A program made the translations under genes and the position numbers. This document shows positions 13,440 to 39,195 of a stretch of DNA of 40,392 bases, one piece after another. The notes under the pieces are model-generated. The model did not search any database and was not told the origin of the DNA. It worked only from the letters and a program-made list of their open reading frames with translations. The stretch's first letter is position 1. The number at the start of each line of letters is the position of its first letter. Source of the stretch: Ruminococcus sp. (GTDB lineage Bacteria > Bacillota > Clostridia > Lachnospirales > Lachnospiraceae); contig JAMPIB010000034.1 in assembly GCA_023663085.1 (NCBI GenBank), forward strand, positions 1 through 40,392, in the 5' to 3' direction.

Positions 13440-13474
13440 AAGTTAAGTCCTATCAATTCAGTAGGACTTAACTT
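13440..13474 (-). terminator. Perfect 13-bp hairpin between convergent Fic and potD genes
   Basis: AAGTTAAGTCCTA (13440-13452) pairs perfectly with TAGGACTTAACTT (13462-13474) around a 9-nt loop. The right arm lies inside the last codons of potD, whose stop is at 13458-13460. Flanking T-richness is modest in both directions (TCTTCT after the minus-strand stem), so it may serve both genes. Confidence 0.65.
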
Positions 13475-14525
13475 CTTTCCATAATTCATTATAGAGCGCA
13501 TCCCCATCTTCACCCAGATAGGTATAGCTTTCCAGATTGTCATACTGTATCAGATCGGGAAAGGCGATAGGTGAATTTTTAATTTCTTCATCTTCAATTA
13601 AGGCCCTGGCCGCGTCGTTGGGAGTCGAGTAGGTGATATACTGGAAATTTTTCAGGGCAATATCTTCCCGGCACATAAAGTCAATGAACTTTTCAGCGTT
13701 TTCCTTATGTGGAGCATCTTTTAAGATGACCCAGGAATCTATCCATACGTTAGTGCCTTCAGTGGGAATGACATATTCCAGATCGGGATTTTCGTATTGT
13801 GTGTAGATTGCTTCACCGGAATAGATAACGCCGATGGCTGCCTCGCCGCTTATCATCTTATCGCGCACTTGATCGACGACATAAGCCTGCACGAGCGGTT
13901 TCTGCGCAATCAAAGCGTCTTTGGCCTGTTGCAGCTTATCGGGGTCGAGTGTGTTCATGGAATAGCCGTATATTTTTTCTGCGACCATGAAAGCGTCCCT
14001 GACGGAGTCCTGCATCAGTATCTCGTCCGTATATTTTTCATCCCAAAGTTGAACCCAACTGGTAATAGGCTCCTCTACCAGGGTCTTATTATAAAGGATG
14101 CCTACAGTGCCCCAGCAATAGGGGACAGAGTATTTATTTTCAGCGTCAAAGGCGCGCGACAGCATCCAGTACTGGCTGCCGATATTGGCTTTGGCATTGG
14201 GAATGTGCGTAAAATCCAGTTCTAAGAGCAGGTCATTTTTGATCATTTTATGGATCATATAATCGGAAGGGCAGACGACGTCATATTCGGCAGCACCGGT
14301 CTCTATCTTGGGATACATGGTTTCGTTTGTCTCAAATTCATCATAGATCACCTTGATGCCTGTTTCTTCTTCAAACTGTGTAAGTGTATCCGGGTCTACA
14401 TATTCGCCCCAGTTATAGACAATGACCACATTTTCATCATCACTCTTTGCACCGCATCCGCTAAGTGCGCAACCGCCGAGCAGGCATAGCGCGGCGCAAA
14501 GATATAATAAAAGCTTTTTTTTCAT
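13458..14525 (-). CDS. potD: Spermidine/putrescine ABC transporter substrate-binding lipoprotein
   Basis: The 355-residue protein begins with a lipoprotein signal (MKKKLLLYLCAALCLLGGCA followed by LSGC). It then has VVIVYNWGEYVDPDTLTQFE, the signature opening of PotD/PotF polyamine-binding proteins. YDVVCPSDYMIHKMI and the ligand-pocket region YSVPYCWGTVGILYNKT are also typical. It captures polyamines outside the cell and delivers them to PotBC. It is the last gene of the minus-strand operon regulator-potA-potB-potC-potD. AAAGGA lies about 12 bp before the ATG. Its 3' end is built into the terminator hairpin. Confidence 0.93.
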   Translation of the reverse strand: MKKKLLLYLCAALCLLGGCALSGCGAKSDDENVVIVYNWGEYVDPDTLTQFEEETGIKVIYDEFETNETMYPKIETGAAEYDVVCPSDYMIHKMIKNDLLLELDFTHIPNAKANIGSQYWMLSRAFDAENKYSVPYCWGTVGILYNKTLVEEPITSWVQLWDEKYTDEILMQDSVRDAFMVAEKIYGYSMNTLDPDKLQQAKDALIAQKPLVQAYVVDQVRDKMISGEAAIGVIYSGEAIYTQYENPDLEYVIPTEGTNVWIDSWVILKDAPHKENAEKFIDFMCREDIALKNFQYITYSTPNDAARALIEDEEIKNSPIAFPDLIQYDNLESYTYLGEDGDALYNELWKEVKSY

Positions 14526-14549
14526 TTTATGAGTTGATCCTTTCTGAAA

Positions 14550-15335
14550 TCAGCCGTTTGATTTTGCACTTTGCTCATTTTTGTCCGGCGTCCTGTTGAC
14601 CAGGATAAGCAAAACCAGCACCGTTACGAAAATAAGAGTAGAAAGCGCGTACATTTCCGGCTTAATCCCTTTTTTGACTTCCGTATATATTTTGGTTGAT
14701 AAAGTGTCGATCCCTGCGCCTTTCGTAAAATGCGTGATGATAAAGTCATCTAACGACATGGTAAAAGCCATTAAAAACCCGGATAAGATACCCGGCATCA
14801 GGTCGGGAAGCATGACCTTGAAAAATGCGGTGACATGTGAGGCGCCGAGGTCAAGTGCGGCCTCGTAGACGTTTCGGTTTAACTGTTTCATCCGTGGCAT
14901 GATGCTAAGTATCACATACGGAATGTTAAAGGTAATGTGGGAGAGCAGGATCGTCCCGAAGCCGAAGCGCAGTCCCAGACTGATGAATAATAGCATCAGA
15001 GAGATACCGGTCACGATATCCGCATTTAGCATGGGGATATTGGTGATGCCCATAAGGATGGTGCGGTATTTTTTTTTCATGCCGTTCATGGCCAGACAGG
15101 CGATCGTGCCGATCACGGTGGCGATGAAGGCGGATAAAAAGGCGATGAGCAGCGTTGTGCCAAGAGCCTCTAAGATAACGTCATCCTCCAGAAGAGAGGC
15201 GTACCATTTAAGAGAAAAGCCGCCCCATTTCGCACGGGTCTTGCTGGCGTTAAAAGACAGTACGATAAGCGTTCCGATCGGCGCGTATAGAAACAGAAAA
15301 ATAAGCGATACATATATTTTTTTAGCAGTCCGCAT
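14550..15335 (-). CDS. potC: Spermidine/putrescine ABC transporter permease PotC
   Basis: This 261-residue inner-membrane permease has six hydrophobic segments. The first is IYVSLIFLFLYAPIGTLIVL. The EAA-type loop that docks the ATPase reads EAALDLGASHVTAFFKVMLP. The sequence SFNASKTRAKWGGFSLKWY after the first helix is typical of PotC. GGAGG overlaps the end of potB and precedes the ATG, with a 12-bp gap between the two genes, indicating coupled expression. Confidence 0.93.
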   Translation of the reverse strand: MRTAKKIYVSLIFLFLYAPIGTLIVLSFNASKTRAKWGGFSLKWYASLLEDDVILEALGTTLLIAFLSAFIATVIGTIACLAMNGMKKKYRTILMGITNIPMLNADIVTGISLMLLFISLGLRFGFGTILLSHITFNIPYVILSIMPRMKQLNRNVYEAALDLGASHVTAFFKVMLPDLMPGILSGFLMAFTMSLDDFIITHFTKGAGIDTLSTKIYTEVKKGIKPEMYALSTLIFVTVLVLLILVNRTPDKNEQSAKSNG

Positions 15336-15347
15336 GATGAGCCTCCT

Positions 15348-16187
15348 TTATTCTTCTTTATCGAACAGGGCGGAGATCACCATATTGATGAGAATAAAGA
15401 TCATCAAAACGATGGATAGTCCGCTGCCAAGATGCCAGTTGCCGGCCTGCGTGAACTCCTGTTCGATCACGTTGCCGATAAGCAGTACCTTACTGCCGCC
15501 AAGTAACGTACTGATCACGAATGTTGTCAGTGCCGGTACGAATACCATAGTGATGCCGCTGATGATGCCGGGCACGCTGAGCGGCAGGATGATGCGAAAA
15601 AAGGTCTGTATCTTATTAGCGCCAAGATCTTTGGCAGCATTAATAACGTTTTCATCTATTTTGGAAAGTGCGTTATATAAAGGCAGCACCATAAACGGCA
15701 GGAAATTGTATACCATACCAAGTATGATAGCATACGAAGTATTGATAATTTTTAACGGCGGCAGGTTAAGGAAAGAAAGGATACCGTTGATGACCCCCGT
15801 TTTCTCCAGCAAAGTCTGCCAGGCAAGCGTGCGCAGTAAAAAGTTCATCCACATGGGCAGGATAAAGATGAGGATGACAAAATTATGTTTTCCGGTCTTC
15901 TTTTCTACCAGTATCATGGCTAACGGATAGGCCAGAAGAAAGCAGATCAGCGTGCACACAACAGATAACAAAAGGGAGCGGCCGAAGGCTCTGGCGTGTC
16001 CGATGGAGGCGATCGCCAGAATATTTTCCATTGTAAAGGCGCCCGTCCTATCTGTGATACCATAGTAGAAGATCATGCCAAGCGGTATGATGATAAAAAA
16101 GGCTGACCAGAATACATAGGGAGCTGCCAACAGTTTTCTGCCGGAAAGGGAATTAAAATATGATAAAATCTTTGTCCTAGATTTCAA
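15348..16187 (-). CDS. potB: Spermidine/putrescine ABC transporter permease PotB
   Basis: The permease has six hydrophobic segments and the EAA-like ATPase-docking loop [24 protein letters not shown] at 16187 is preferred as start because AGGAGG lies 9 bp upstream (minus strand); an ATG at 16205 keeps the same frame but has no ribosome binding site. With the TTG start the protein has ~279 residues and overlaps potA by 11 bp; with the ATG it has 285. It forms the membrane channel with PotC. Confidence 0.9.
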
Positions 16188-17250
16188 GTGCGACAGCCTC
16201 CTCATCTTCAGATTCCGGTTTGTTCATGATCTGGATATTAAAGGGGTCTACCCTGATGCCGACCTTTTGGCCTACAGGCGTAAGCTGGGTGGAGTGTACG
16301 AGCCACTCAAAGCCATTCGCCATAACCTCCATTTCATAGTGGACGCCCTTAAAAATAAGATGTGTGACGACGCCTTGTATTGTACCAGCTTCGGGAACGG
16401 TCAGTTCCACATCTTCCGGACGTATGACTACATCTACGGGTCTGTGCGTACCGAAGCCTGTATCCACGCAGGCGAAGCGGGCGCCTAAGATTTCCACCAG
16501 TTTATCTTCGATCATCGTAGCGGCGATAATATTGCTGTCACCGATAAAATCAGCTACAAAGGCGTTCTCCGGTTCGTTATAGATAGATTCGGGCGTGCCG
16601 ATCTGCTGGATATATCCCTGGTTCATGACGACTATCGTATCGGACATGGTCAGCGCTTCTTCCTGATCGTGCGTAACGTAAACGAAAGTGATACCCAGTT
16701 CGTTTTTCATACGGATGAGTTCATACTGCATCTCCTGACGCAGCTTCAGGTCAAGAGCGCCTAACGGCTCATCCAACAAAAGCACTTTCGGCTCGTTGAC
16801 AATGGCTCTGGCAATGGCGATACGCTGCTGCTGGCCGCCGCTTAGAAGGTCGGGCATACGGTTTTCATAGCCTTCCAGATTGACCAGTTTTAAGGCGTAT
16901 TTTATCTTATCGTCGATATAATTTTTTGTTTTTTTCTTGATTTTTAAGCCAAAAGCGATATTATCTGCGATCGTCATATGCGTAAACAGGGCGTATTTCT
17001 GGAAAACGGTATTCAGAGGCCGCTTATTGGGCGGTACTTTGGTGATGTCCCGGCCATCAAAAATAACCCTGCCGGTATCGGGATTTACGAAGCCGCCGAG
17101 AATGCGCAGAGTGGTCGTCTTGCCGCAGCCGCTGGGGCCGAGCAGGGTCACGAACTCGTTTTCATGTATATTCAGATCAAGGTCATCCAAAACCATCTGT
17201 CCGTCAAACGATTTGGAGATATGTTCTAAGTTTATCAGTTCTTTTTGCAT
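16177..17250 (-). CDS. potA: Spermidine/putrescine ABC transporter ATP-binding protein
   Basis: This 357-residue ATPase has Walker [11 protein letters not shown] near residue 38, the Q-loop [11 protein letters not shown], the signature [15 protein letters not shown] near residue 139 and Walker [13 protein letters not shown]. The switch His lies in [13 protein letters not shown]-terminal TOBE-type domain ([20 protein letters not shown]) is typical of PotA/MalK importers. It powers uptake of polyamines through PotBC. GAGGAGG precedes the ATG. The regulator gene lies 15 bp upstream and potB overlaps downstream. Confidence 0.95.
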
Positions 17251-17265
17251 GAAAAATCCTCCTCG

Positions 17266-17823
17266 CTAAAAGTTGGGCGGGGTAGAAATCCAGAGGAATG
17301 TGGCGCCTGTTTTTTCTCCCGCTTTGATATAGTGCCCGGAATCCGGTCTGAAATAGAAGGATTCTCCTTTTCTGGCCGTTATGGTCCGTTCTCCGAGAAT
17401 GATATGGATCGTACCGGAGAGAACGTAACCGAACTCTTCGCCTTCATGCGGAAGGTCGGGATAAGTGGAGCCTCCGGCTTCTAAAGTGACGCGTATCGGT
17501 TCCATCATGTTTTTCTGTGCGTTGGGGATGATCCATTCTATTTTATTATGCAGTTCGTTATCCAGTTTTTCAAAATAATCGTCGGCACCGAAGACAATCT
17601 GTTCGTCGGCGGTATCTGTAAAAAAGTTTTTTAAGTCTGTTCCCAGACATTGCAGGATGTCAATAAGGGTGGCAATGGAAGGTGAAGTCAGATTATTTTC
17701 CAACTGACTGATAAAACCTTTGGACAGTTCGCAGCGGTCGGCCAGTTCTTCCTGCGTGAGTCCCTTTTTGTTCCGCAGTTCTTTGATCTTATTTCCAATG
17801 TCCATTTTTCCGGCGGAGTCCAT
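17266..17823 (-). CDS. XRE-cupin transcriptional regulator of the pot operon
   Basis: The 185-residue protein has an N-terminal helix-turn-helix (IKELRNKKGLTQEELADRCE, then LSKGFISQLENNLTSPSIAT). A C-terminal cupin follows (HEGEEFGYVLSGTIHIILGE, then ARKGESFYFRPDSGHYI). This architecture is shared with PuuR-type repressors that sense polyamines or related ligands. It is the first gene of the operon, 15 bp before potA, which supports control of polyamine uptake and autoregulation. AAGGAA precedes the ATG at 17823; an alternative ATG six codons later (MDIGNK) has a poorer site. Confidence 0.88.
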   Translation of the reverse strand: MDSAGKMDIGNKIKELRNKKGLTQEELADRCELSKGFISQLENNLTSPSIATLIDILQCLGTDLKNFFTDTADEQIVFGADDYFEKLDNELHNKIEWIIPNAQKNMMEPIRVTLEAGGSTYPDLPHEGEEFGYVLSGTIHIILGERTITARKGESFYFRPDSGHYIKAGEKTGATFLWISTPPNF

Positions 17824-20062: not shown

Positions 20063-21124
20063 ATGGAAAAAGGTAAATATGTAGCGTATGTCTCTACCTA
20101 TACGATTGGAAACAAGGACAAATACGGTATCAGGATCTATGATGTGGATATTGAACATGGCCGTATGAGTGAAAAAAACCAGGTGGAGATTACCAATTCA
20201 TCTTATATCAGCATTTCTCATAACCAGAAATTTTTATATTCCATCACAGACTTCGGCGTGGAGGCTTACAGGATCCTGCCGACGGGAGACCTGGAGAAAA
20301 TTAATGACGGCAGTATCAATGGTATGAGAGGCTGCTATCTTTCTACCGATTATGACGATCAGTTTCTGTTTGTAGGCGGTTATCATGATGGGAAGATCAC
20401 GGCCCTGCGTTTGCGCGAGGACGGCGGTATCGGAGAGATCACCGACGAAATCTATCATAAGGGGCTTGGCAGTATCGCGGAACGTAATTTCAGACCGCAT
20501 GTCAACTGTGTGAAGATGACGAGGGACAATAAATATCTGTGCGCCGCCGATCTGGGTATGGATCATACGAATGTTTACCGCCTTGACCATGTAAACGGCA
20601 AGCTGCGTCCAATCGACATGATCCGCAGCGAGCAGGAATCCGCCCCCAGACATCTGAAATTTTCCAAAGACGGCAGATACCTTTATATCGTACATGAATT
20701 AAAGAACTGCATCGACGTCTATACCTATCAGGAGATAAACGGCAATCCGGAATTTGAGAAGATCCAGACGATCTCAACCTTGAATGATTATCATGCGGGC
20801 GGTTCCGCGGCCAGTGCTCTGAATATCTCCGAGGATTTTAAATATATGGTAAGTTCCAATGCCGGAGATAACAGCGCAGTCCTTTATAAGATAGACGAGG
20901 AGAACGGTAAATTAGAGAAAATACTGTGTCTGCCGATCAGCGGCGATTATCCGAAGGATGCGAATCTTTTCCCGGATAATAAGCACCTTGTTTCCCTGAA
21001 CCATGAGTCGAATACGATGACATTTTTCAATGTGGATCTGGAAAAAGGACTGCTCATCATGAACGGAAAAGAAATTGAAGTTCCGCAGCCAAACTGTATT
21101 ATCTTTCATAGACTTGCACAATAG
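20063..21124 (+). CDS. Beta-propeller lactonase-family protein (6-phosphogluconolactonase-like)
   Basis: The protein (~353 residues) begins MEKGKYVAYVSTYTIGNKDK and continues YGIRIYDVDIEHGRM. These are the first blade and the 'YVgTYT' motif of the Lactonase (seven-bladed propeller) family. Repeated blade text such as HLKFSKDGRYLYIVHELKNC and FRPHVNCVKMTRDNKYLCAA is present throughout. Some members hydrolyse 6-phosphogluconolactone in the pentose phosphate pathway; others have unknown substrates. The start at 20063 is chosen because GGAGGAA lies 9 bp before it, although the frame is open further upstream. There is no signal peptide, so it is cytoplasmic. The XrtG operon promoter overlaps its stop codon. 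Confidence 0.82.
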   Translation: MEKGKYVAYVSTYTIGNKDKYGIRIYDVDIEHGRMSEKNQVEITNSSYISISHNQKFLYSITDFGVEAYRILPTGDLEKINDGSINGMRGCYLSTDYDDQFLFVGGYHDGKITALRLREDGGIGEITDEIYHKGLGSIAERNFRPHVNCVKMTRDNKYLCAADLGMDHTNVYRLDHVNGKLRPIDMIRSEQESAPRHLKFSKDGRYLYIVHELKNCIDVYTYQEINGNPEFEKIQTISTLNDYHAGGSAASALNISEDFKYMVSSNAGDNSAVLYKIDEENGKLEKILCLPISGDYPKDANLFPDNKHLVSLNHESNTMTFFNVDLEKGLLIMNGKEIEVPQPNCIIFHRLAQ

Positions 21125-21142
21125 AAAAAAATGTGATATTAT
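21114..21142 (+). promoter_or_regulatory. Promoter of the XrtG exosortase operon
   Basis: TTGCAC (21114-21119, inside the lactonase stop region) and TATTAT (21137-21142) are 17 bp apart. The start codon of the first operon gene is at 21201. No terminator separates the lactonase from the operon, so some read-through is also likely. Confidence 0.6.
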
Positions 21143-21200
21143 AAAATAATCTATAGATAAATGTAAAAAAGTGCAATGAATATAACGCGAAAGAAGCTGA

Positions 21201-23621
21201 ATGTGTCATATGCAGACAAAGAAGTCCAGTCCAGCCCTGTTACAGGCAGGTAATTTTATAGCAGCAGTCATTGGCTCTCTGATCATTGCCGCAGGTATTG
21301 GATTTATTTTGTATGACACCGGGTTATATCTGCATGGCAGTTCTGTTTATGCGCAGATGTACAAGGTCGAAGTTCTGGCGGAGTCGATAGCAGACGGGGT
21401 ATGGTTCCCGCCATATGCCGGAGACTGGTATAACGGTTATGAGATCTTCCGCTATACGTCGCCGTTTGCTTATCTGCCGGCAGCGGTGATCCAGCAGGTT
21501 TTTCATGCCGATATACATATCAGTATCTGTGTGTTTTATGGACTTATGGCGTTTGTTTCCCAAATGGGATTTATGTTATTCGGCATCAGGGAAAAAAAGA
21601 GACTGGCGGCATTTTTGACAGGACTAGCTTTTTTGCTTTTGCCGACTACTTTTTCCATACTGATACTCGAAGGCAGTCTGGATGCGGTCATGAGTCTGGC
21701 GTTTATGCCGCTTGCCCTGTTTTTCCTGCATGATTTTATGAAGCGGAAACACAGGATAGCGTTATTGCCGTTTTCCGGTATCTTTTGTCTGATTATACTG
21801 GCGGATTATATCGCGGCTATCGCTTTCGGTATTGTGTTGTTGTTATATCTTATATTTTACGCGATCGCGGCCAGGGCATGGAGATATGCCGTGGCAGTCA
21901 TCGCCAATATGTTGATCTTATATGTGATAATGGGATATTATCTTTATCCTGCTATTGCAGGCGGCCTGTTAAGTAAGGATAATATCATACACGGCAATGT
22001 GCAGCCGCCTGTCAGCATCGCGCTGCTGGTGATCGCCGTCATCGGTCTGATAACAGCAGACAGGAGCCGGGTTGCGGGTTTTTTATCGACGGTGCTTTTT
22101 ATCGTTCTGGCCTTACCGGTCATGGAGCCGGTCAGAAAGATGATGTCTTCGCCGATCTTAGAGAAAACATACTGGTATCTGCTGATTGCCGTGACAATCT
22201 TCATGGTCACGCTGTTATGCTGGCAAAGACTGCGGCCAGTCTTTTTGGTGATCGCACTCTGTGTCATTGTGGGAGAAAATATCCCGCAGATCGCCTCATT
22301 GGGAGATGGAAATCGTGTTTTGCAGGAAAACGAGGCGTTTGTTACAGATTATCTTTTGGAAGAAGCGGCGGCTTATACGGATAACAGAGTGGTACTGATG
22401 GATCTGACAAGGCTGGGGGCGTTTCCACAGTGGTATTTTGCGGGCAGAGGTGTGGATACTATGGGCGGCTGGGATTTTGACAGCGCGCTTACGACACGGA
22501 ATCTGACCACTTTAAATGAAGCATTCGCCGACGGGTTTTATGATTATATGTTTGACAGGATGCTGCTTTATGGTAATGATACGGCTATTATCTTAAAAGA
22601 ATTTCTGGAAGAGGGGGCCTATGATACGCTGATTGCAGCAGGAGCGCGAAACGGTTACGAAGTGTGGTCGGAGAATGACAAGGCGCTTGTTTTTAAGGCG
22701 GCGGCTGTCAATGGCAGTTACGGTGTGGTCACGCAGTATACGAATATGGCCATAGGCACGGATGCGGCATATATCGCTTACATATATCCTTCTTTTGCTT
22801 ACGGGAACAGCGATTATCTGGATGATTATACGATAACGGAACTGGAGCAGTATCAGAAACTGTTTCTGGCGGGTTTTACTTACCGGGATAAAGAGACGGC
22901 GGAAAATATGCTCAAAGAACTTTCACGCAAGGGAACCGAGATTTATATTGACATGCAGCATATTCCGGTCAACGCCCTTACCGGCAAGAATGAATTCATG
23001 GGCGTGTATGCACAGTATGTCCAGTTTACCGAGGACTTTCCGATTCTGGAGAACGATAACGGCAATCAGTTTAAACTGGATTTTAAAGCGGGCGGATATG
23101 ATGTCTGGGATACCGTATATATTTCCGGATGCGAAGAGATTGTCAAAGAGTCTATTTATGAAAACAACAACCACTTAGTATATTTAGGAAAAAACTATGA
23201 ACCGAATGTAACGTTCATGGGATTTAATCTTCTGTATTATTACTTGACGACACACAATCAGGATTTAAAGCGTTTTCTGGATGAAGCATTACAGATTTCA
23301 TCGGAAGACCTGCACGAACCGGTCATCGTACCGGTACAGATAGAGAAGGAACCTTCCCGGATCACAGTGCACACGGAGGAAGACGGGGTCAACTGCAGCC
23401 TTGCCGCCGTTGATGCGCTCACAGCGGACAGAATCGTTTCCACACAGGAGAATCTGCTCGTGGTCAATCAGGGAGATACCATATTTAATATCGTTTACGC
23501 GGGACGAAGAGAGGGTAAATTTTTCAGCATCATAGGTTTGATCGCGCTTGGAATCATATGGATCAGCGTGTATGTCCTGTTAGAAAACGATGATAGCAAA
23601 AAAACTGATGAGGTGCAGTAA
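21201..23621 (+). CDS. Large PTPS-related integral membrane protein of the XrtG locus
   Basis: The 806-residue protein has an N-terminal half with about ten hydrophobic segments (first FIAAVIGSLIIAAGIGFILY). A ~400-residue extracytoplasmic domain follows, and a final helix (IIGLIALGIIWISVYVLL) is followed by a charged tail. This is the layout of the '6-pyruvoyl-tetrahydropterin-synthase-related' membrane proteins (PTPS_related), which look like polytopic glycosyltransferase- or YfhO-like proteins. The early motif YEIFRYTSPFAYLPAAV is typical. It begins the operon, 15 bp ahead of the surface-protein gene. A plausible role is transfer of a glycan or lipid-linked group at the outer membrane face; this is inference. 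An ATG three codons later is an alternative start. Confidence 0.8.
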   Translation: MCHMQTKKSSPALLQAGNFIAAVIGSLIIAAGIGFILYDTGLYLHGSSVYAQMYKVEVLAESIADGVWFPPYAGDWYNGYEIFRYTSPFAYLPAAVIQQVFHADIHISICVFYGLMAFVSQMGFMLFGIREKKRLAAFLTGLAFLLLPTTFSILILEGSLDAVMSLAFMPLALFFLHDFMKRKHRIALLPFSGIFCLIILADYIAAIAFGIVLLLYLIFYAIAARAWRYAVAVIANMLILYVIMGYYLYPAIAGGLLSKDNIIHGNVQPPVSIALLVIAVIGLITADRSRVAGFLSTVLFIVLALPVMEPVRKMMSSPILEKTYWYLLIAVTIFMVTLLCWQRLRPVFLVIALCVIVGENIPQIASLGDGNRVLQENEAFVTDYLLEEAAAYTDNRVVLMDLTRLGAFPQWYFAGRGVDTMGGWDFDSALTTRNLTTLNEAFADGFYDYMFDRMLLYGNDTAIILKEFLEEGAYDTLIAAGARNGYEVWSENDKALVFKAAAVNGSYGVVTQYTNMAIGTDAAYIAYIYPSFAYGNSDYLDDYTITELEQYQKLFLAGFTYRDKETAENMLKELSRKGTEIYIDMQHIPVNALTGKNEFMGVYAQYVQFTEDFPILENDNGNQFKLDFKAGGYDVWDTVYISGCEEIVKESIYENNNHLVYLGKNYEPNVTFMGFNLLYYYLTTHNQDLKRFLDEALQISSEDLHEPVIVPVQIEKEPSRITVHTEEDGVNCSLAAVDALTADRIVSTQENLLVVNQGDTIFNIVYAGRREGKFFSIIGLIALGIIWISVYVLLENDDSKKTDEVQ

Positions 23622-23636
23622 GAGGAGGAAATTAAG

Positions 23637-25148
23637 ATGAAGAGGCGGACAAAAAAACTGGTGTTTCCCTTGTTGATGTCGGGAATCATGATTGGGTCGA
23701 ACGTATGCTATGTATGTGCGCAGGGCCAGATAGCAGACGTTGCGGTCACAGCAGAAGCACCTGTAGCTGTAAGTGAACCGGAAAGCAGCGTGACGGTACC
23801 GGAGGCACAACCGGCAGCGATGGCACAGGCTGAGCAGACAGTGCAGCCGACAGCAACGGATACACAGACCGAGCAGATGACCCAGCCGGCAGCAACGGAT
23901 ACACAGACTGAGCAGGCGGCGCAGCCGGCAGCAACGGATACACAGACCGAGCAGGTGGCGCAGCCGGCGGCGACAGATACGCAGACGGAACAGACGACCC
24001 AGCCGGAGAGTGAAACGCAGACCGAGGGAACGACAGAAACAAACGGTGATGTGCAAAATGAAGCGGATGTGGTCACGCCTGAGCAGGGCATCGATGTAGA
24101 AACGGGAGAAGGCACAGAGAACGATACAGAGAGTACGGATGTGACCGGAGAAGTATTGCCGGATGACGCTGCGGCGGCAGATGGAGCAGAAGAACTTCCC
24201 GAACAGACTTTTGTAAACGCCAGTGGAGAGGAAGTACTTCCTTCCACGTTAGTCGGTGTAGATTATAATACAGTTTCGGAATTATATGATGGCGCGGCCA
24301 ATGTGATAAAGCAGTATGTGATCTCGGATACCTGTGACAAGGATACAGTCATGGAATGTTATGTCGATGAGAATGGGAGTCTGGTTATGCTCATTTCACA
24401 GGGAGTTCCGAAGAGTGAAATGCCGGAAGAAGAGGCTGGCTTTGTAGAAAAAGTGGCCTATGAACTGGAGGCTGTATTTGGAGACAGCAGTTCCGCTCCG
24501 GCGATAGATGGAAGTTTCACTGGCTGGGATGATATTCCGGCATCTTATGAATTTAACTGGAATAAACCGGACGCATGGGTAGACGGTGTGCACTATACAG
24601 AAACAAACAGCACGGACGTGCGTCATGAGATGAAACTTTACAGCGATGGTGAGAATGTATATCTGAAGGTTATTTTTGCCAGAGAATTCTGCAATGGACA
24701 GGTAGCCAACGGCAATGACTATCAGTTTTGGATTGATGACGGGCAGATGGCGGCTTATCAGGTAGAATGGCCGGATGGATCGAATCTTGCCAATAGTGGC
24801 AGCATACAGCCGGGTGTGTATCAGGTGGATGTCAGACATCGTGACAGTTCCTGGTCATATGTTCTGACAGACGGAGCGGTTGCTTACTATTGTATAAACG
24901 AAGGCAATTTAAATAATGAACTGGAATTAAAAATCCCGATTTCCGAGTTCGTAAAGCAGAATCCCAATATTGATCTGGATAATTATAGTAAGATCGGATT
25001 TTTTACGCCGAATCTGATGCAGGATAAGATATGGACGGCAGGTGCATCTACAGGTGCAGAACCCTTTGCGGCGGCAATGTTCTTATTGGTACCGACCAGC
25101 TACATTGTAATTAAGAAAAAAGACAAAAAGGAGATGGCATTTGCATGA
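23637..25148 (+). CDS. Surface protein with Thr/Gln-rich repeats and Firmicu-CTERM-like sorting tail (probable XrtG substrate)
   Basis: The 503-residue protein has a signal peptide (RRTKKLVFPLLMSGIMIGSN). A low-complexity stretch (residues ~45-185) follows, with four near-perfect 13-residue repeats of the type QPAATDTQTEQxx and then acidic Thr/Glu text. A globular domain (residues ~280-465) reads like a CBM9/DOMON-type beta sandwich (IDGSFTGWDDIPASYEFNW, VYLKVIFAREF, DYQFWIDD). The end is tripartite: a TAGASTGAEP motif (467-476), a hydrophobic FAAAMFLLVPTSYIVI, then KKKDKK. This is the layout of exosortase targets and fits the Firmicu-CTERM domain associated with XrtG. GAGGAGG precedes the ATG. 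The stop overlaps the next gene (ATGA), tying it to the operon. Binding target unknown. Confidence 0.85.
   Translation: MKRRTKKLVFPLLMSGIMIGSNVCYVCAQGQIADVAVTAEAPVAVSEPESSVTVPEAQPAAMAQAEQTVQPTATDTQTEQMTQPAATDTQTEQAAQPAATDTQTEQVAQPAATDTQTEQTTQPESETQTEGTTETNGDVQNEADVVTPEQGIDVETGEGTENDTESTDVTGEVLPDDAAAADGAEELPEQTFVNASGEEVLPSTLVGVDYNTVSELYDGAANVIKQYVISDTCDKDTVMECYVDENGSLVMLISQGVPKSEMPEEEAGFVEKVAYELEAVFGDSSSAPAIDGSFTGWDDIPASYEFNWNKPDAWVDGVHYTETNSTDVRHEMKLYSDGENVYLKVIFAREFCNGQVANGNDYQFWIDDGQMAAYQVEWPDGSNLANSGSIQPGVYQVDVRHRDSSWSYVLTDGAVAYYCINEGNLNNELELKIPISEFVKQNPNIDLDNYSKIGFFTPNLMQDKIWTAGASTGAEPFAAAMFLLVPTSYIVIKKKDKKEMAFA
23844..23999 (+). repeat. 39-bp tandem repeat, four copies, in the surface-protein gene
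   Basis: Units begin at 23844, 23883, 23922 and 23961 with CAGCCGGCAGCAACGGATAC-like starts. Each encodes QPAATDTQTEQ plus two variable residues. A fifth, degenerate unit follows at 24000. The repeat is in frame and changes in copy number would preserve the reading frame. Confidence 0.92.
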
Positions 25149-25624
25149 GCGAACGACATGAAGCATATTTGTATCATGTAACTTTTAATGCAATGCATAA
25201 TCTGGTTGTAAACGATCCTAAGAGAATGCATGCCCACACGTTTTGTGTGGGCATCTATACCATAGAAAAACAGGAAGACCATCCTGTTTTTTTAAGTAGC
25301 GAAAAAATCCTCGAACGGTATTTTGAACGGTTTAAGGGAATCCGGCTGAATGAGGTGCCGCCTTTTATTGAGACTATACCGACGTTGGAGAACATGGGGA
25401 ATGTTTTTTATGAGGATCTCAAACCGCTCTTTGACAGGAACGGCATGCAGCTTCTGCTTCTGGAAGTGGGTGACTCGCCGATCTCTACCTACGGCGTCGG
25501 AGAACGTCCGATGGTCGGCAACGTTTATAATTTAGCGCAGACGGAACTGGTGGACGAGTACTGTGAACGTGTACGGCAGCGATATGAGCAGAGAGTACCG
25601 AAAGGGGGTAAAAATGGCAGGTAG
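25145..25624 (+). CDS. 6-pyruvoyl-tetrahydropterin synthase-like protein, XrtG-associated (first copy)
   Basis: The 159-residue protein keeps the PTPS/QueD skeleton. FNAMHNL gives His18, and MHAHTF gives His29 and His31, the three usual Zn ligands. IPTLENMGNVFYEDL matches the family's 'PTaEN' helix, and LLLEVGDSPIS carries the late Glu (Glu107) that contacts the pterin ring in true PTPS. A Cys at 34, just after the His pair, is a candidate nucleophile, though its position differs from classical members. Real PTPS/QueD makes pterin or deazapurine precursors; the XrtG-associated family is separately recognised and its reaction is unknown. AAGGAG precedes the ATG. It overlaps the surface-protein gene by 4 bp and XrtG by 11 bp. 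Confidence 0.8.
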   Translation: MSERHEAYLYHVTFNAMHNLVVNDPKRMHAHTFCVGIYTIEKQEDHPVFLSSEKILERYFERFKGIRLNEVPPFIETIPTLENMGNVFYEDLKPLFDRNGMQLLLLEVGDSPISTYGVGERPMVGNVYNLAQTELVDEYCERVRQRYEQRVPKGGKNGR

Positions 25625-26222
25625 GATCATTATCTTTATTGTGTTATTTCTTGTATGGTTATATATTCTGACGGTCTTTAAAAGAAAGAAACTGGAATTT
25701 TTTTATTTCCTCTTAGGCAGTATCGGTACTTTTTTATTCAGCTTTGCGCTGTTACGAAATGTGATGACCAAAATACTGACAACGTTGACCTGTTTTTTGA
25801 CGGGATTACTCGGAAATGTGTTGGGGCTTTTCAAAGCCTATACTTCGCATTCTATTCTTTTCATCGAAAATGCGGATGGCCCGATTTCTTTGTATGTGGA
25901 TTTTGAGTGCGGCGGTGTCATAGAGATTCTGGTTTTCATTTCCCTGATCTGGTTTTTTGCCGTATATAAGGTTAAGGAGAAGGCGTTGATATCTCTGGCG
26001 GGTATCGTATGGATCATTCTGGCCAATATCATCAGACTTTTTTCCATCTGCCTGATCATCAACAAATTTGGCAACGAATCATATTATGTGGCACATACGA
26101 TTGTGGGAAGGCTGATTTTCTATGCACTTTCCATTATCCTGTATTTTTATGTTTTCACGAGGGCACAGATACGCAAACAACGAGTAGGAGAGTTTGGTTA
26201 TGATAACGAGGATAGCAAATGA
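25614..26222 (+). CDS. xrtG: Exosortase family protein XrtG
   Basis: The 202-residue polytopic membrane protein has about six to seven hydrophobic segments and the exosortase catalytic residues. These are Cys99 in DFECGGVIE, Arg141 in ILANIIRLFSI and His161 in YYVAHTIVGR. Exosortases are membrane transpeptidase-like enzymes that cut a C-terminal sorting signal and attach the protein to a membrane-linked acceptor. The start at 25614 follows a strong AAAGGGGG. It lies between a PTPS-like protein and a family 2 glycosyltransferase, the neighbourhood described for Gram-positive XrtG. The only visible substrate in the window is the surface protein encoded two genes upstream. Confidence 0.9.
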   Translation: MAGRIIIFIVLFLVWLYILTVFKRKKLEFFYFLLGSIGTFLFSFALLRNVMTKILTTLTCFLTGLLGNVLGLFKAYTSHSILFIENADGPISLYVDFECGGVIEILVFISLIWFFAVYKVKEKALISLAGIVWIILANIIRLFSICLIINKFGNESYYVAHTIVGRLIFYALSIILYFYVFTRAQIRKQRVGEFGYDNEDSK

Positions 26223-27618
26223 GATATTTTTCTGGGCGGCATGGATCATTATACCGCTTTTGATCGAGATCATACCGGCAGTAGGCAATTTTTTTATCCT
26301 GCTGTTTAAACGTATGCGGATAGCGGACGATATCAAACTGGAATATCTGCCGAACATTACGCTGATGATACCGGTCTATAATTCGGGACAGACTTTGTAC
26401 CGCTGTATCAAGTCCATAGATGAATCGACTTATCCGAATCATCTGATTGAGATCATGCTGGTGGATAACGGCTCGAAAGATAACAGTTTTGAGATATTCC
26501 AGAAAGCACAGATTGAATTTCCGACACTGGCCATGTGGTGGATGAATTCCAAGCAGGGAAAGTCCAAGGCATTAAATAAGGCTATTTTTAATAGCAACGG
26601 AAAATATATCATCAATATCGACAGCGATGGCATTCTTGACCAGCATGCGCTTATGAATATCGTCAGACAGTTTGAAACTTTTCATGATATCGACTGCATG
26701 ACGGGTGTTATTTTAATTGAACCGGCGCTGATTGACGAAACAAAGGGCTTTTTCTTAAAGCAGTTCCGGAAACTGGAATTTATGGAATATGCGCAGGCTT
26801 TTCTGGCAGGAAGGAACTTTGAGTCGCAGTTTAACAGTATCTATACGTTATCGGGCGCTTTTTCCTCTTTCCGTAAGTCGGTACTGATGAAGACCTTTTT
26901 ATATAATACCAATACCATTTGCGAGGATACGCATTTAACGTTCCAGATCCGGGCCATCCTTAAGAAAAAGGTGCATTTGTGCAATGACGCTATCTTCATG
27001 GTGGATCCGATTGAGAGCGTGAACAAATTCTATACGCAGAGACAGCGCTGGCAGATAGGGGAGCTGGAAGTTTCCCATATGTTCTTAAAAAACAAACTTC
27101 ACAGACCGCTTACAGGGTATTTTAACGATTTTGTCATCCGTCTGTTGATGACTGACCATACCTTTGCTTTCCCGCGGATGATCTGGTATTTTGTACTGAT
27201 CGCGCTTGGCTGTATGAATTATAATTTCCGTAATGTCGGTATCGCCTGCCTTATCATTTATGCACTGTATGTGTTCAGTTCGTTTTTGTATTATCTGAAT
27301 ATCATTTCTTTCCTGAAAGGATATCCGGATCTGCGCAGATATTATGCGAGAAAATTACTGTACCTTTTCGTGCTGCCTCTCTTTAATCTGTTCGCCTTTT
27401 TCGTCAGATTCGCAGGTATCATCAATTCGATCAAGCGAAAGAGCAGCTGGAAGACGCTGACATTTACGGAAGAGCGTAAGATGGTGGGGGAAACCGTGCG
27501 CAAGGACTTTTTCTTTGTGCTAAACGGCAGGGAATTGCTGTTAAAGATACTGGAAAAGCCGGAACCGACGGACAGAAAACGAACCGCCAGAAGAAAAGTC
27601 AGGCGCAGGACTGCATAG
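26200..27618 (+). CDS. Processive-type family 2 glycosyltransferase, XrtG-associated
   Basis: The 472-residue membrane enzyme begins with a transmembrane helix and then the GT2 domain. ITLMIPVYNSGQTLYRCIKS opens the fold, LVDNGS gives Asp89 and NIDSDG gives the DxD at 141-143. CEDTHLTFQ supplies the base Asp243, and QRQRW at 280-284 is the Q(R/Q)xRW motif of processive synthases. Several hydrophobic helices follow (residues ~320-420), then a basic tail. Such enzymes build polysaccharides from nucleotide sugars on the inner membrane face while extruding the chain. An ATG at 26200 with AGGAG 9 bp upstream is preferred over a TTG six bases earlier. It overlaps xrtG by 23 bp. Confidence 0.9.
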   Translation: MITRIANEIFFWAAWIIIPLLIEIIPAVGNFFILLFKRMRIADDIKLEYLPNITLMIPVYNSGQTLYRCIKSIDESTYPNHLIEIMLVDNGSKDNSFEIFQKAQIEFPTLAMWWMNSKQGKSKALNKAIFNSNGKYIINIDSDGILDQHALMNIVRQFETFHDIDCMTGVILIEPALIDETKGFFLKQFRKLEFMEYAQAFLAGRNFESQFNSIYTLSGAFSSFRKSVLMKTFLYNTNTICEDTHLTFQIRAILKKKVHLCNDAIFMVDPIESVNKFYTQRQRWQIGELEVSHMFLKNKLHRPLTGYFNDFVIRLLMTDHTFAFPRMIWYFVLIALGCMNYNFRNVGIACLIIYALYVFSSFLYYLNIISFLKGYPDLRRYYARKLLYLFVLPLFNLFAFFVRFAGIINSIKRKSSWKTLTFTEERKMVGETVRKDFFFVLNGRELLLKILEKPEPTDRKRTARRKVRRRTA

Positions 27619-27632
27619 AATGGGGGAGATAA

Positions 27633-28082
27633 ATGGAAAAAACATACAGGCAGTATAAATTGAAATCTTATCTGAATATGAATCATTTTATCATAATTGA
27701 TAACAAACCCGGCGAGGTGCATCCGCATACATGGGAACTTATTGTCAGCGTTATTTCCGCGCAGAGCGATATGACGCCCTTTGTCAATATCGAGCGGAGG
27801 ATAGAACAGATTTTAGAGCAGTATCAGGATAAACTGCTCAATGACTGCGCGCCATTTGATAAGCTGGTACCGACCGTGGAGAATGCGGCCAGATATTTTT
27901 TCCGGCTGATACAGGACAGTATCATTCAGGAGGGCTGGATCTTAATGATGTTAGAGGTGAGCGAGACGCCGACCAGATCCTATATCATCAATGCGCTTTT
28001 GAACGAAGACGATATATGGGATGAATGGTATGAGAACATCACCAGAAAGAATATGGGTATTGCAAGACAGATGGATGTCTGA
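27633..28082 (+). CDS. 6-pyruvoyl-tetrahydropterin synthase-like protein, XrtG-associated (second copy)
   Basis: The 149-residue protein is a diverged paralogue of the one at 25145. LNMNHFIII supplies His18 and EVHPHTWEL supplies His30 and His32, so the Zn site is intact. VPTVENAARYFFRLI is the conserved helix and LMMLEVSETPTRSYI the late Glu region. Unlike the first copy it has no Cys next to the His pair; the residue after HT is Trp. Gaps between conserved blocks have the same size in both, so they may form a hetero-oligomer or act in successive steps. It is the last gene of the operon. GGGGGAG precedes the ATG. Confidence 0.78.
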   Translation: MEKTYRQYKLKSYLNMNHFIIIDNKPGEVHPHTWELIVSVISAQSDMTPFVNIERRIEQILEQYQDKLLNDCAPFDKLVPTVENAARYFFRLIQDSIIQEGWILMMLEVSETPTRSYIINALLNEDDIWDEWYENITRKNMGIARQMDV

Positions 28083-28119
28083 ACTTAAGATGATGCTTAA
28101 GATATGAAATCTGAAATGA

Positions 28120-28149
28120 GTCATAAAAGAAAGAACCCCGACATACATT
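28120..28149 (+). promoter_or_regulatory. Sigma-E-like sporulation promoter of spoIVA
   Basis: GTCATAAA (28120-28127) and CATACATT (28142-28149) are separated by 14 bp, matching the mother-cell sigma-E pattern (-35 like GTCATATT, -10 CATACAnT). The predicted start, ~28156, lies inside the loop region of the hairpin at 28134-28170. Confidence 0.65.
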
Positions 28150-28175
28150 TTAGTAAGTATGGAAGGGGTTTTTTT
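28134..28175 (+). terminator. Terminator-like hairpin whose 3' arm carries the spoIVA ribosome binding site
   Basis: AACCCC (28134-28139) plus CATAC (28142-28146) pair with GTATG (28157-28161) plus GGGGTT (28165-28170), followed by a run of T to 28175. It ends the XrtG operon. GGAAGGGG in the 3' arm is also the Shine-Dalgarno of spoIVA, whose ATG begins at 28176. Confidence 0.75.
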
Positions 28176-29663
28176 ATGGACATTAATAACAGAAATGAAT
28201 ATGCGGTATACAAAGACATACAGGATAGAACGGGCGGGGAGATCTACATAGGCGTCGTAGGACCCGTCAGAACTGGAAAATCTACTTTTATCAAACGGTT
28301 CATGGACTTACTCGTTCTGCCTTATATGGAAAATGAGCATGAAAAGGAACGGGCCAGGGATGAACTGCCGCAGAGTGCAGGCGGCAGAACGATCACCACT
28401 ACGGAGCCGAAATTTATTCCCAAAGAGGCGGCACAGATTCATTTAGGCACGGACATTGATGTAAAAGTCCGGCTGATCGACTGCGTCGGCTATATGGTGG
28501 AGGGCGCCTCCGGTCATATGGAAGAAAACGAAGAAAGACTGGTAAAAACACCGTGGTCCGCGGAGGAGATTCCTTTTACAAAAGCGGCGGAGATCGGTAC
28601 GCGCAAGGTTATCAAAGACCATTCGACCATTGGTATCGTTATTACCTGCGACGGTTCGTTCGGAGAACTTCCGCGCAGTAGTTTTGTGGAGGCGGAAGAG
28701 CGGACGATAAAGGAATTACAGGATATACATAAACCTTTTCTGGTGCTGCTCAATTCAGCGAAGCCTTATGCGGAGGAGACAAGGCAGATAGCGGATGAGA
28801 TACACGAGAAATATCGGGTGAGCGTCATGCCGGTCAACTGTGAGCAGTTAAAACAGGAAGATATCAATCGCATCATGGAAAATATTTTATATGAGTTTCC
28901 GTTGACGATGATAGAATTTTATATGCCCAAATGGGTGGAAATGCTCTCTTATGACCATAAGATGAAACAGGACATCATCAGCCGTATCAAAACGCTCATG
29001 AATGAACTGACAAATGTCAGGGATATCACGAAGGCCAACTTTGATCTGGAGAGCGAGTATATCCGGAAATGTAAACTGGACGGTATCAATATGTCGGAGG
29101 GCAGCGTCAAGATCGTACTGGATCTGGATGATACTTATTATTATGAGATGATAAGCGATCTGGTGGGTGAGCCTATCGTCAGTGAATATCAGATGTTATC
29201 TACGTTAAAAGAGATGGCAAAGATGAAGAGAGAGTATACCAAAGTGCTTCATGCGATGGAATCTGTCCGTTATAAAGGATACGGCGTGGTGATGCCGGAT
29301 AAGGAAGAAATCGTATTGGAAAAACCGGAGGTCATCAAACAGGGAAATAAATTCGGCGTCAAGATCAGGGCCGAGAGTCCGAGCATCCATATGATAAAAG
29401 CCAGTATCGAGACGGAAATTTCGCCGATCGTCGGCACCGAGACGCAGGCCAAAGATCTGATACAATATATTTCGGATACCGGAACGAGCGACGAGGGCAT
29501 CTGGGAGACAAATATTTTCGGAAAAACGATAGAACAGCTTGTAAATGACGGTATTTCCACCAAAATTGCCATGATAAACGAAGAGAGCCAGGTCAAATTG
29601 CAGGAAACCATGCAGAAAATTGTCAACGACAGCAACGGCGGCATGGTGTGTATTATCATTTGA
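28176..29663 (+). CDS. spoIVA: Stage IV sporulation protein A, spore coat morphogenetic ATPase
   Basis: The 495-residue protein begins MDINNRNEYAVYKDIQDRTG and has Walker A GPVRTGKST near residue 30, followed by the TRAFAC-like text TITTTEPKFIP and LIDCVGYMVEGASGHMEENE. SpoIVA hydrolyses ATP to polymerise around the forespore and forms the basement layer of the spore coat; the Bacillus protein has almost the same length (492). The C-terminus ends in a hydrophobic MVCIII, typical of the anchoring region that contacts SpoVM in Bacillus. The start is set by GGAAGGGG 7 bp upstream. Expression should be mother-cell specific from the sigma-E-like promoter at 28120. It has no operon partner. Confidence 0.95.
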   Translation: MDINNRNEYAVYKDIQDRTGGEIYIGVVGPVRTGKSTFIKRFMDLLVLPYMENEHEKERARDELPQSAGGRTITTTEPKFIPKEAAQIHLGTDIDVKVRLIDCVGYMVEGASGHMEENEERLVKTPWSAEEIPFTKAAEIGTRKVIKDHSTIGIVITCDGSFGELPRSSFVEAEERTIKELQDIHKPFLVLLNSAKPYAEETRQIADEIHEKYRVSVMPVNCEQLKQEDINRIMENILYEFPLTMIEFYMPKWVEMLSYDHKMKQDIISRIKTLMNELTNVRDITKANFDLESEYIRKCKLDGINMSEGSVKIVLDLDDTYYYEMISDLVGEPIVSEYQMLSTLKEMAKMKREYTKVLHAMESVRYKGYGVVMPDKEEIVLEKPEVIKQGNKFGVKIRAESPSIHMIKASIETEISPIVGTETQAKDLIQYISDTGTSDEGIWETNIFGKTIEQLVNDGISTKIAMINEESQVKLQETMQKIVNDSNGGMVCIII

Positions 29664-39164: not shown

Positions 39165-39191
39165 AGAAAAAATGTCTCGGAAGGAGTTTTT
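39146..39191 (+). terminator. Terminator-like hairpin whose 3' arm carries the spoVAF ribosome binding site
   Basis: CTCCTTCC (39146-39153) and GACAT (39156-39160) pair with ATGTC (39172-39176) and GGAAGGAG (39179-39186), followed by TTTTT. It would terminate the nrd-dut transcript. GGAAGGAG is also the Shine-Dalgarno for the GTG at 39196. Confidence 0.75.
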
Positions 39192-39195
39192 ATCT

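What the first reader, a model, noticed from the sequence alone, without database searches (positions are those of the whole stretch)
21114..28082. Self-contained XrtG exosortase operon with substrate, glycosyltransferase and three PTPS-related proteins
Six tightly spaced or overlapping genes under one promoter encode everything needed for a dedicated surface-protein pathway. They are a likely substrate with signal peptide and tripartite tail, XrtG (Cys99/Arg141/His161), a processive GT2 enzyme, a large outer-face PTPS-related membrane protein and two PTPS-like proteins. XrtG and Firmicu-CTERM are named families, but to my knowledge the acceptor and the reaction of the PTPS-like proteins are not known. 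A working model is that the GT2 builds a membrane-linked glycan, the PTPS-like pair makes or modifies a small group, and XrtG joins the substrate to that acceptor.
Basis: partly seen in the sequence, partly recalled or inferred. Interest (0 to 1): 0.75.

Follow-up and report, generated by a model that had tools for sequence, protein, structure and literature searches.

The report
XrtG surface-protein and glycan cassette
This gut bacterium carries a clean six-gene cassette that probably builds a membrane-bound sugar structure and attaches one dedicated surface protein near it; the family was already named, but its large 'unknown' membrane protein turns out to have a sugar-transferase fold, and some relatives have fused the surface domain to a disabled version of the attaching enzyme.

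Summary
The six genes are real and form a near all-or-none unit: of 200 same-family genomes the same 14 carry XrtG, its GT2 and its PTPS-like protein above cut-off; Firmicu-CTERM is above cut-off in 13 of the 14, below in the other, above in none outside. In a same-genus genome the flanking genes' matches lie 57 bp apart with the cassette missing. XrtG systems are named families, so this is a new member of a known kind. Three corrections: (1) the 'PTPS-related' membrane protein has a GT-C glycosyltransferase fold; in 40 of 115 loci a PTPS-like domain is fused to its N-terminus. (2) The two PTPS-like proteins belong to two clean classes that keep the zinc histidines (165 of 171) but lack the catalytic Cys (0 of 171), so ordinary pterin chemistry is unlikely. 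(3) In 9 loci (one clade) the substrate domain is fused to XrtG and its Cys is Asn, while GT-C (8 of 9) and GT2 (7 of 9) remain; the misses are at contig ends. Best model: a membrane glycan-assembly machine with one surface protein tethered to or near its product. Acceptor and chemistry are inferred.

The parts
21201..23621 (+). GT-C-fold polytopic membrane glycosyltransferase-like protein (PF10131 'PTPS_related'), 806 aa, with large C-terminal domain and last TM; first-loop acidic position is Ser in this copy
   Evidence: (AftD E 3.5e-7, ArnT 2.3e-6, OST/PglB)
23637..25148 (+). dedicated substrate, Firmicu-CTERM protein, 503 aa: signal peptide, Thr/Gln/Glu repeats, beta-sandwich, sorting tail
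23637..23720 (+). predicted signal peptide (KRRTKK n-region, hydrophobic core, VCA|QG); read by eye
   Evidence: sequence
23824..24006 (+). tandem repeat, 39-nt (13-aa) unit, about 4 copies, Thr/Gln/Glu-rich linker
24498..25034 (+). beta-sandwich 'CBM-like' domain; closest fold CBM9, not significant
   Evidence: 7nwo E 0.044, TM 0.24; 7nwn E 0.67
25035..25145 (+). sorting tail: TAGASTGAEP motif, hydrophobic helix, KKKDKK
   Evidence: helix 190-218 of the model
25145..25624 (+). PTPS-like class A (TIGR03112), the class fused to the GT-C N-terminus in 40 of 115 loci
25614..26222 (+). XrtG exosortase, 202 aa, ATG start
25908..25910 (+). codon of Cys99, predicted nucleophile
26034..26036 (+). codon of Arg141
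26094..26096 (+). codon of His161
26200..27618 (+). XrtG-associated GT2 (TIGR03111), PgaC/IcaA-like with QxxRW
27633..28082 (+). PTPS-like class B (TIGR03112), the class fused to a two-TM sensor-like protein in 6 of 115 loci

Best explanation
A self-contained membrane machine. The GT2 (cytosolic face) elongates a lipid- or membrane-linked glycan; the GT-C protein adds sugar(s) on the outer face from a polyprenyl-phosphate donor; the exported CBM-like protein is held by its tail, and XrtG cleaves the tail near the STGA motif through a Cys99 acyl-enzyme and passes the protein to an acceptor that is most likely the glycan or glycolipid made by the same machine. The two zinc-site PTPS-like domains are cytosolic partner domains, class A docked to the GT-C and class B to a membrane sensor-like protein (absent here), more likely regulatory or structural than pterin-making. 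Shown by computation: gene set, predicted fold of the GT-C, PTPS classes and residues, co-occurrence, fusions. Inferred: every reaction, the acceptor, zinc binding and the order of steps.
For: Near all-or-none co-occurrence in 200 genomes and a site without the cassette in a same-genus genome. In 68 loci with at least 6.5 kb on both sides: GT2 68, GT-C 65, PTPS-like 65, CBM-like substrate domain 66. Fusions link the parts, in loci of 115: PTPS+GT-C 37, PTPS+GT-C+CBM 3, GT-C+CBM 1, CBM+XrtG 11, sensor+PTPS 6. GT-C fold: pLDDT 91.0, 19 PDB hits at E<=0.001, all GT-C enzymes or, by their titles, complexes that hold one (for 9n9j_I this is my inference). GT2 of 946-994 aa in 6 loci; both of those tested by Pfam (L082, L109) end in a sulfatase-fold domain, in L082 nearest to phosphoglycerol transferase (2.9e-53, 181.6 bits against a cut-off of 572). 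Some loci add a GT2 with a GtrA/DPMS domain over cut-off (L043, L096). These point to a membrane-linked glycan. Precedent for a lipid acceptor in this superfamily: archaeosortase ArtA (PMC7157517, passages read).
Against: No acceptor, product or cleavage is shown. TM-scores of the GT-C matches are modest (0.29-0.41 by query length). The GT-C first-loop column is not Asp in 23 of 92 copies (Glu in 7 of these) and is Ser here, so this copy may act differently or be inactive. The substrate's match to CBM9 is not significant. In one clade the module persists with a Cys-less XrtG. Short substrates (L020, L027, 242-243 aa, read whole) have no Thr-rich region, so that region is not an essential glycan acceptor. 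The tail motif varies: G-x-[STP]-[ST]-G in 64 of 99 listed proteins, another motif in 7, neither in 28.
Confidence: 0.5

Rival explanations
1. Plain protein sorting: XrtG cleaves and anchors the substrate to an ordinary membrane lipid or releases it; GT2 and GT-C only glycosylate that protein.
For: ArtA precedent with a proposed phospholipid acceptor (PMC7157517, passages); GT-C fold relatives include the protein glycosyltransferases OST/PglB and DPY19; Thr-rich repeats in this substrate.
Against: Short substrates without such a region occur with the same GT2 and GT-C; GT2 is PgaC/IcaA-like with QxxRW in 109 of 110, which suggests a polymer; GT2 fused to a phosphoglycerol-transferase-like domain.
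Confidence: 0.25
2. The PTPS-like pair is an active zinc enzyme pair making a new small group that XrtG uses.
For: Zinc histidines in 86 of 86 class B and 79 of 85 class A; further well-conserved N15, N70, E83, E/D111, P113.
Against: No Cys between the first and second zinc His in 171 of 171, and the Asp-His pair replaced; fused as N-terminal domain of a membrane enzyme or C-terminal domain of a sensor-like protein; six class A domains lost zinc ligands, which fits docking or sensing better.
Confidence: 0.2
3. An EPS synthase complex under cyclic-di-GMP-type control in which the CBM-like protein is a built-in accessory subunit; XrtG mainly positions it and cleavage is secondary.
For: Sensor-like gene in 40 of 68 loci, with a GGDEF-like end domain in 25 (hhalign of a 31-row against a 2-row profile, prob 63, E 7e-5), and true GGDEF plus HD domains in L112; CBM-like domain fused to XrtG (Cys lost) or to the GT-C.
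Against: The window and its near relatives have no sensor gene; 104 of 104 non-fused XrtG keep Cys, Arg and His, so the reaction looks selected; the GGDEF resemblance is weak and Pfam does not see it in L084 or L109.
Confidence: 0.2

Closest known systems
XrtG / Firmicu-CTERM system (TIGR03110, TIGR03111, TIGR03112, TIGR04145)
   Same: all four models match; [quoted passage not shown] plantarum RNA-seq work (PMC12854382, passages read)
   Different: this version has two separate PTPS-like proteins and a separate GT-C gene; the substrate scores 49.1, just under the cut-off of 50
Archaeosortase ArtA / PGF-CTERM (PMC7157517, passages read)
   Same: exosortase/archaeosortase superfamily (TIGR04178, 53.1 bits, cut-off 23), Cys/Arg/His, tripartite tail
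   Different: XrtG here has one substrate and its own GT2 and GT-C; no phosphatidylserine-type gene in the six-gene unit
GT-C enzymes AftD, ArnT, OST/PglB, DPY19
   Same: predicted fold of the 806-aa protein
   Different: 10-14% identity; no profile match to solved chains at E<=0.1; first-loop position is Ser here
QueD / 6-pyruvoyltetrahydropterin synthase
   Same: PF01242 family (38.2 and 61.3 bits, cut-off 22.4), zinc His triad
   Different: catalytic Cys absent, Asp-His replaced; far under the QueD cut-off (16.5 and 33.1 vs 89.25 bits)
PgaC/IcaA poly-GlcNAc synthase
   Same: 118.9 bits over about 390 aa, QxxRW
   Different: far under the curated cut-off of 422.3; product not inferable

Membership tests
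XrtG exosortase (TIGR03110) | score above curated cut-off | tested here: met
   197.7 vs 102.75 bits
XrtG exosortase (TIGR03110) | Cys, Arg, His of the exosortase triad | tested here: met
   C99, R141, H161
XrtG exosortase (TIGR03110) | cleaves or transfers a tail-bearing substrate | not testable with these tools
   no experiment
Firmicu-CTERM substrate (TIGR04145) | score above curated cut-off | tested here: inconclusive
   49.1 vs 50 for the protein; 52.4 in the genome search
Firmicu-CTERM substrate (TIGR04145) | tripartite tail, beside xrtG, one match in the genome | tested here: met
GT-C glycosyltransferase | GT-C fold | tested here: met
   Foldseek prob 1.00, E 3.5e-7 to 7.5e-4 for 19 chains, GT-C enzymes or complexes that hold one; TM by query length 0.29-0.41
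GT-C glycosyltransferase | acidic residue in the first outer loop | tested here: not met
   Ser in this copy; Asp in 69 and Glu in 7 of 92. The column's role is taken from recalled GT-C knowledge
PTPS / QueD enzyme | zinc His triad | tested here: met
   165 of 171 domains, both window copies
PTPS / QueD enzyme | catalytic Cys between the zinc histidines | tested here: not met
   0 of 171
Sortase (LPXTG) substrate | LPXTG-type motif before the TM | tested here: not met
   TAGASTGAEP stands there (sequence)

The most novel reading that the evidence does not exclude
XrtG modules are membrane glycan synthases in which protein anchoring is a replaceable step: one lineage replaced the exosortase reaction by gene fusion, making a Cys-to-Asn pseudo-exosortase that carries the former substrate domain, while zinc-site PTPS-like pseudo-enzymes act as cytosolic coupling or nucleotide-sensing domains of the GT-C and of a sensor.
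Probability: 0.22. Interest if true: 0.75.

Novelty: new member of a known kind. Interest (0 to 1): 0.55.

Why it matters
Exosortase acceptors in Gram-positive bacteria are not known to me. This compact cassette, absent as a unit from a same-genus genome, makes the question testable: one substrate, one GT2, one GT-C. The fused Cys-less XrtG clade is a natural experiment on what the reaction is for, and reading this PF10131 protein as a GT-C-fold glycosyltransferase gives a concrete function to test in a family whose name points elsewhere.

Tried and rejected
Rejected: LPXTG sortase substrate (no such motif). Rejected: the big protein as a PTPS (fold is GT-C). Led little further: solved-structure relatives by sequence of the GT-C (none at E<=0.1), of class B PTPS (one PTPS chain at E 0.016 and one chance hit), of the substrate domain (five hits, best E 0.22). 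Foldseek gave the substrate domain no hit at E<=0.001 (best CBM9, E 0.044, TM 0.24), and Pfam none above cut-off in 8 hand-picked proteins. GGDEF-like reading of the sensor's end domain is weak. G+C of the cassette (45.1%) does not stand out from its flanks (42.8 and 45.9%), so composition gives no sign of recent transfer.

Literature: no held paper has both 'exosortase' and 'pyruvoyl' or both 'exosortase' and 'pseudoenzyme'; one has both 'exosortase' and 'XrtG'; four have the string 'exosortase g', of which I read passages of two (PMC12854382, PMC8951740) and saw the other two only in the listing. Passages of PMC7157517 and PMC11980579 were read. The 2012 archaeosortase/exosortase paper is not held.

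Sample limits: 115 loci are the window plus 114 fetched. The named scan kept the best 80 of 260 confirmed hits, so it leans to near relatives; L052-L067 are close to the window. Loci are not independent. Genes were assigned with HMMs built from these same loci and mechanical ORFs; genes beyond 8.5 kb from xrtG are missed (L044's GT-C lies there). Structure jobs used 42 of 93 GT-C sequences and 41 of 98 tails beside the window's. Searches used hand-picked proteins. The TIGR03111 search was run at E<=1e-60. The 9 Cys-less XrtG form one clade (support 0.977), hence probably one event. I did not search those genomes for other tail-bearing proteins.

Full report
What is there. Six + strand genes at 21201-28082 encode a PF10131 membrane protein, a Firmicu-CTERM protein, a TIGR03112 protein, XrtG, a TIGR03111 GT2 and a second TIGR03112 protein. 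Neighbours are 14-15 nt apart or overlap by 4, 11 and 23 nt. Upstream lies a lactonase-type beta-propeller gene, downstream spoIVA.

More than chance. XrtG occurs in 14 of 200 same-family genomes; the same 14 have the TIGR03111 GT2 at E<=1e-60 and a TIGR03112 protein over cut-off (four other genomes have weak matches, all under cut-off). Firmicu-CTERM is over cut-off in 13 of the 14, under it in G078 (36 bits), and reaches only 21.7 bits in one genome outside, G133. Wider searches for XrtG: 13 of 398 phylum-level genomes, 9 over cut-off; 9 of 291 class-level genomes; 13 of 54 in the family of G214, 12 over cut-off; 4 of 9 in the family of G330, 1 over cut-off. G060, same genus, has no match to the four TIGR families; there the lactonase match (83%) ends 57 bp before the spoIVA match (80%) starts, and none of the six proteins matches in that 11-kb stretch. 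Synteny was seen for one gene on each side only; the next genes outward did not match there as neighbours. Gain or loss is not resolved, and G+C gives no hint.

Neighbourhoods. Of 115 loci, 68 have at least 6.5 kb on both sides. GT2 is in 68, GT-C in 65, PTPS-like in 65, the CBM-like substrate domain in 66, a two-TM sensor-like protein in 40 and its GGDEF-like end domain in 25. PTPS domains per locus: two in 49, one in 16, none in 3. Missing GT-C: L044 (one lies about 9 kb off), L050, L080. L050 has XrtG and GT2 in one shortened frame and L080 a shortened GT2 joined to a PTPS-like domain; both look decayed.

The large protein. AlphaFold2 with 43 sequences gave pLDDT 91.0, pTM 0.88. Foldseek's 19 PDB hits at E<=0.001 are AftD, ArnT, OST, DPY19 and PglB, or chains of translocon complexes that by their titles or length I take to be the OST subunit (9n9j_I, 8b6l_I); TM by query length is 0.29-0.41. 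In 40 of 115 loci a PTPS-like domain precedes it in the same chain, which I take as the reason for the Pfam name. The first-loop column is Asp in 69, Glu in 7, other in 16 of 92 copies; it is Ser in the window. The fold is well supported; activity of this copy is not.

The PTPS-like proteins. 171 domains from the loci split, in a tree of 170 distinct sequences, into 85 upstream or GT-C-fused (class A) and 85 downstream, sensor-fused or, once, GT2-fused (class B), none misplaced, support 0.94. The window has one of each. The zinc triad is complete in 86 of 86 class B and 79 of 85 class A. No domain has a Cys between the first two zinc histidines, and the Asp-His pair is mostly Asn-Glu (69) or Asn-Asp (41 of 171). 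Which residues are catalytic in PTPS/QueD is recalled.

The substrate. It has a signal peptide (by eye), about four 13-aa repeats, a beta-sandwich (pLDDT 88.5) that starts IDGSFTGW (IDGxxxDW in relatives), and a tail of motif, helix and basic end. Over 99 proteins with this domain and no XrtG, 64 have G-x-[STP]-[ST]-G near the end, 7 of the more distant lineages have a [ST]P-x-P-x-[LM]-[GP] motif instead, and 28 have neither; many of the 28 are near variants such as GTPTMP or ATSTAP, one (second L025 row) has no tail. The best fold hit, CBM9, is below significance.

XrtG and the fused clade. Of 115 XrtG, the 104 not fused to a CBM-like domain all have Cys, Arg, His. Eleven are fused to it: nine have Asn for Cys with Arg kept in nine and His in eight (contig end in L151); two (L100, L116, sister sequences) keep Cys and also keep TPTGP or TSTGP at the junction. 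The nine form one clade whose sister is not fused and keeps Cys. GT-C remains in 8 of 9 (L042's contig starts too late; in L046 it is split in two frames) and GT2 in 7 of 9 (contigs of L045 and L151 end at XrtG). I read this as replacement of the anchoring reaction by fusion, in one event; it is a correlation, and other tail-bearing proteins in those genomes were not sought.

What the extra parts say. In six loci the GT2 is 946-994 aa long; in the two checked by Pfam the extra part is a sulfatase-fold domain, and in L082 its nearest NCBIfam models are phosphoglycerol transferase I and MdoB (2.9e-53, 2.6e-50), both well under their cut-offs. Some loci have a further GT2: with GtrA in L043 and L096; in L070 nearest to polyprenyl-phospho-GalNAc synthase but far under cut-off (46.5 vs 370). 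L112's sensor carries GGDEF and HD domains. Together these suggest a membrane-linked, decorated glycan, perhaps under nucleotide control. None of these extras is in the window's unit.

Known or new. The system is named (NCBIfam) and mentioned as complete in PMC12854382, where its transcripts are raised in L. plantarum strains that induce interferon compared with one that does not (passages). I found no held paper that joins exosortase with the PTPS-like proteins. New here, to my knowledge: GT-C assignment by fold for this protein, the two PTPS classes and their fusions, the fused Cys-less XrtG clade, and the site without the cassette. The window itself is an ordinary member.

Noticed in passing
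window 13458-17823 (-): Solute-binding protein, two permeases, ABC ATPase and an HTH-cupin regulator look like an ABC uptake operon.
   Followed up: partly
window 28104-29663 and 39172-40368: spoIVA directly follows the cassette and a GerA-type germination gene lies near the window's end.
   Followed up: partly
L112:11849-13663; L162: Sensor-like protein of the XrtG locus carries GGDEF and HD domains by Pfam in L112; L162's similar 594-aa protein was read by eye only.
   Followed up: partly
L082, L108, L109, L117, L118, L123: XrtG-associated GT2 of 946-994 aa; in L082 and L109 fused to a sulfatase-fold, phosphoglycerol-transferase-like domain.
   Followed up: partly
L086, L087: Two XrtG loci on two contigs of one metagenome-assembled genome (isolate SUG1695).
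   Followed up: no
L050, L080: XrtG and GT2 in one shortened frame (L050); GT2 shortened and joined to a PTPS-like domain (L080): look like decayed loci.
   Followed up: no
G066:C83:9311-9802: A 1750-aa frame with a CBM-like domain away from the XrtG locus, matching only positions 3-147 of the Firmicu-CTERM model, so without the tail.
   Followed up: no
L127: Contig labelled Anaerolineaceae carries an XrtG 48% identical to the window's; may be misbinned.
   Followed up: no
window clade, GT-C first outer loop: The window and many of its near relatives have Ala, Ser or Asn where most GT-C copies have Asp.
   Followed up: partly
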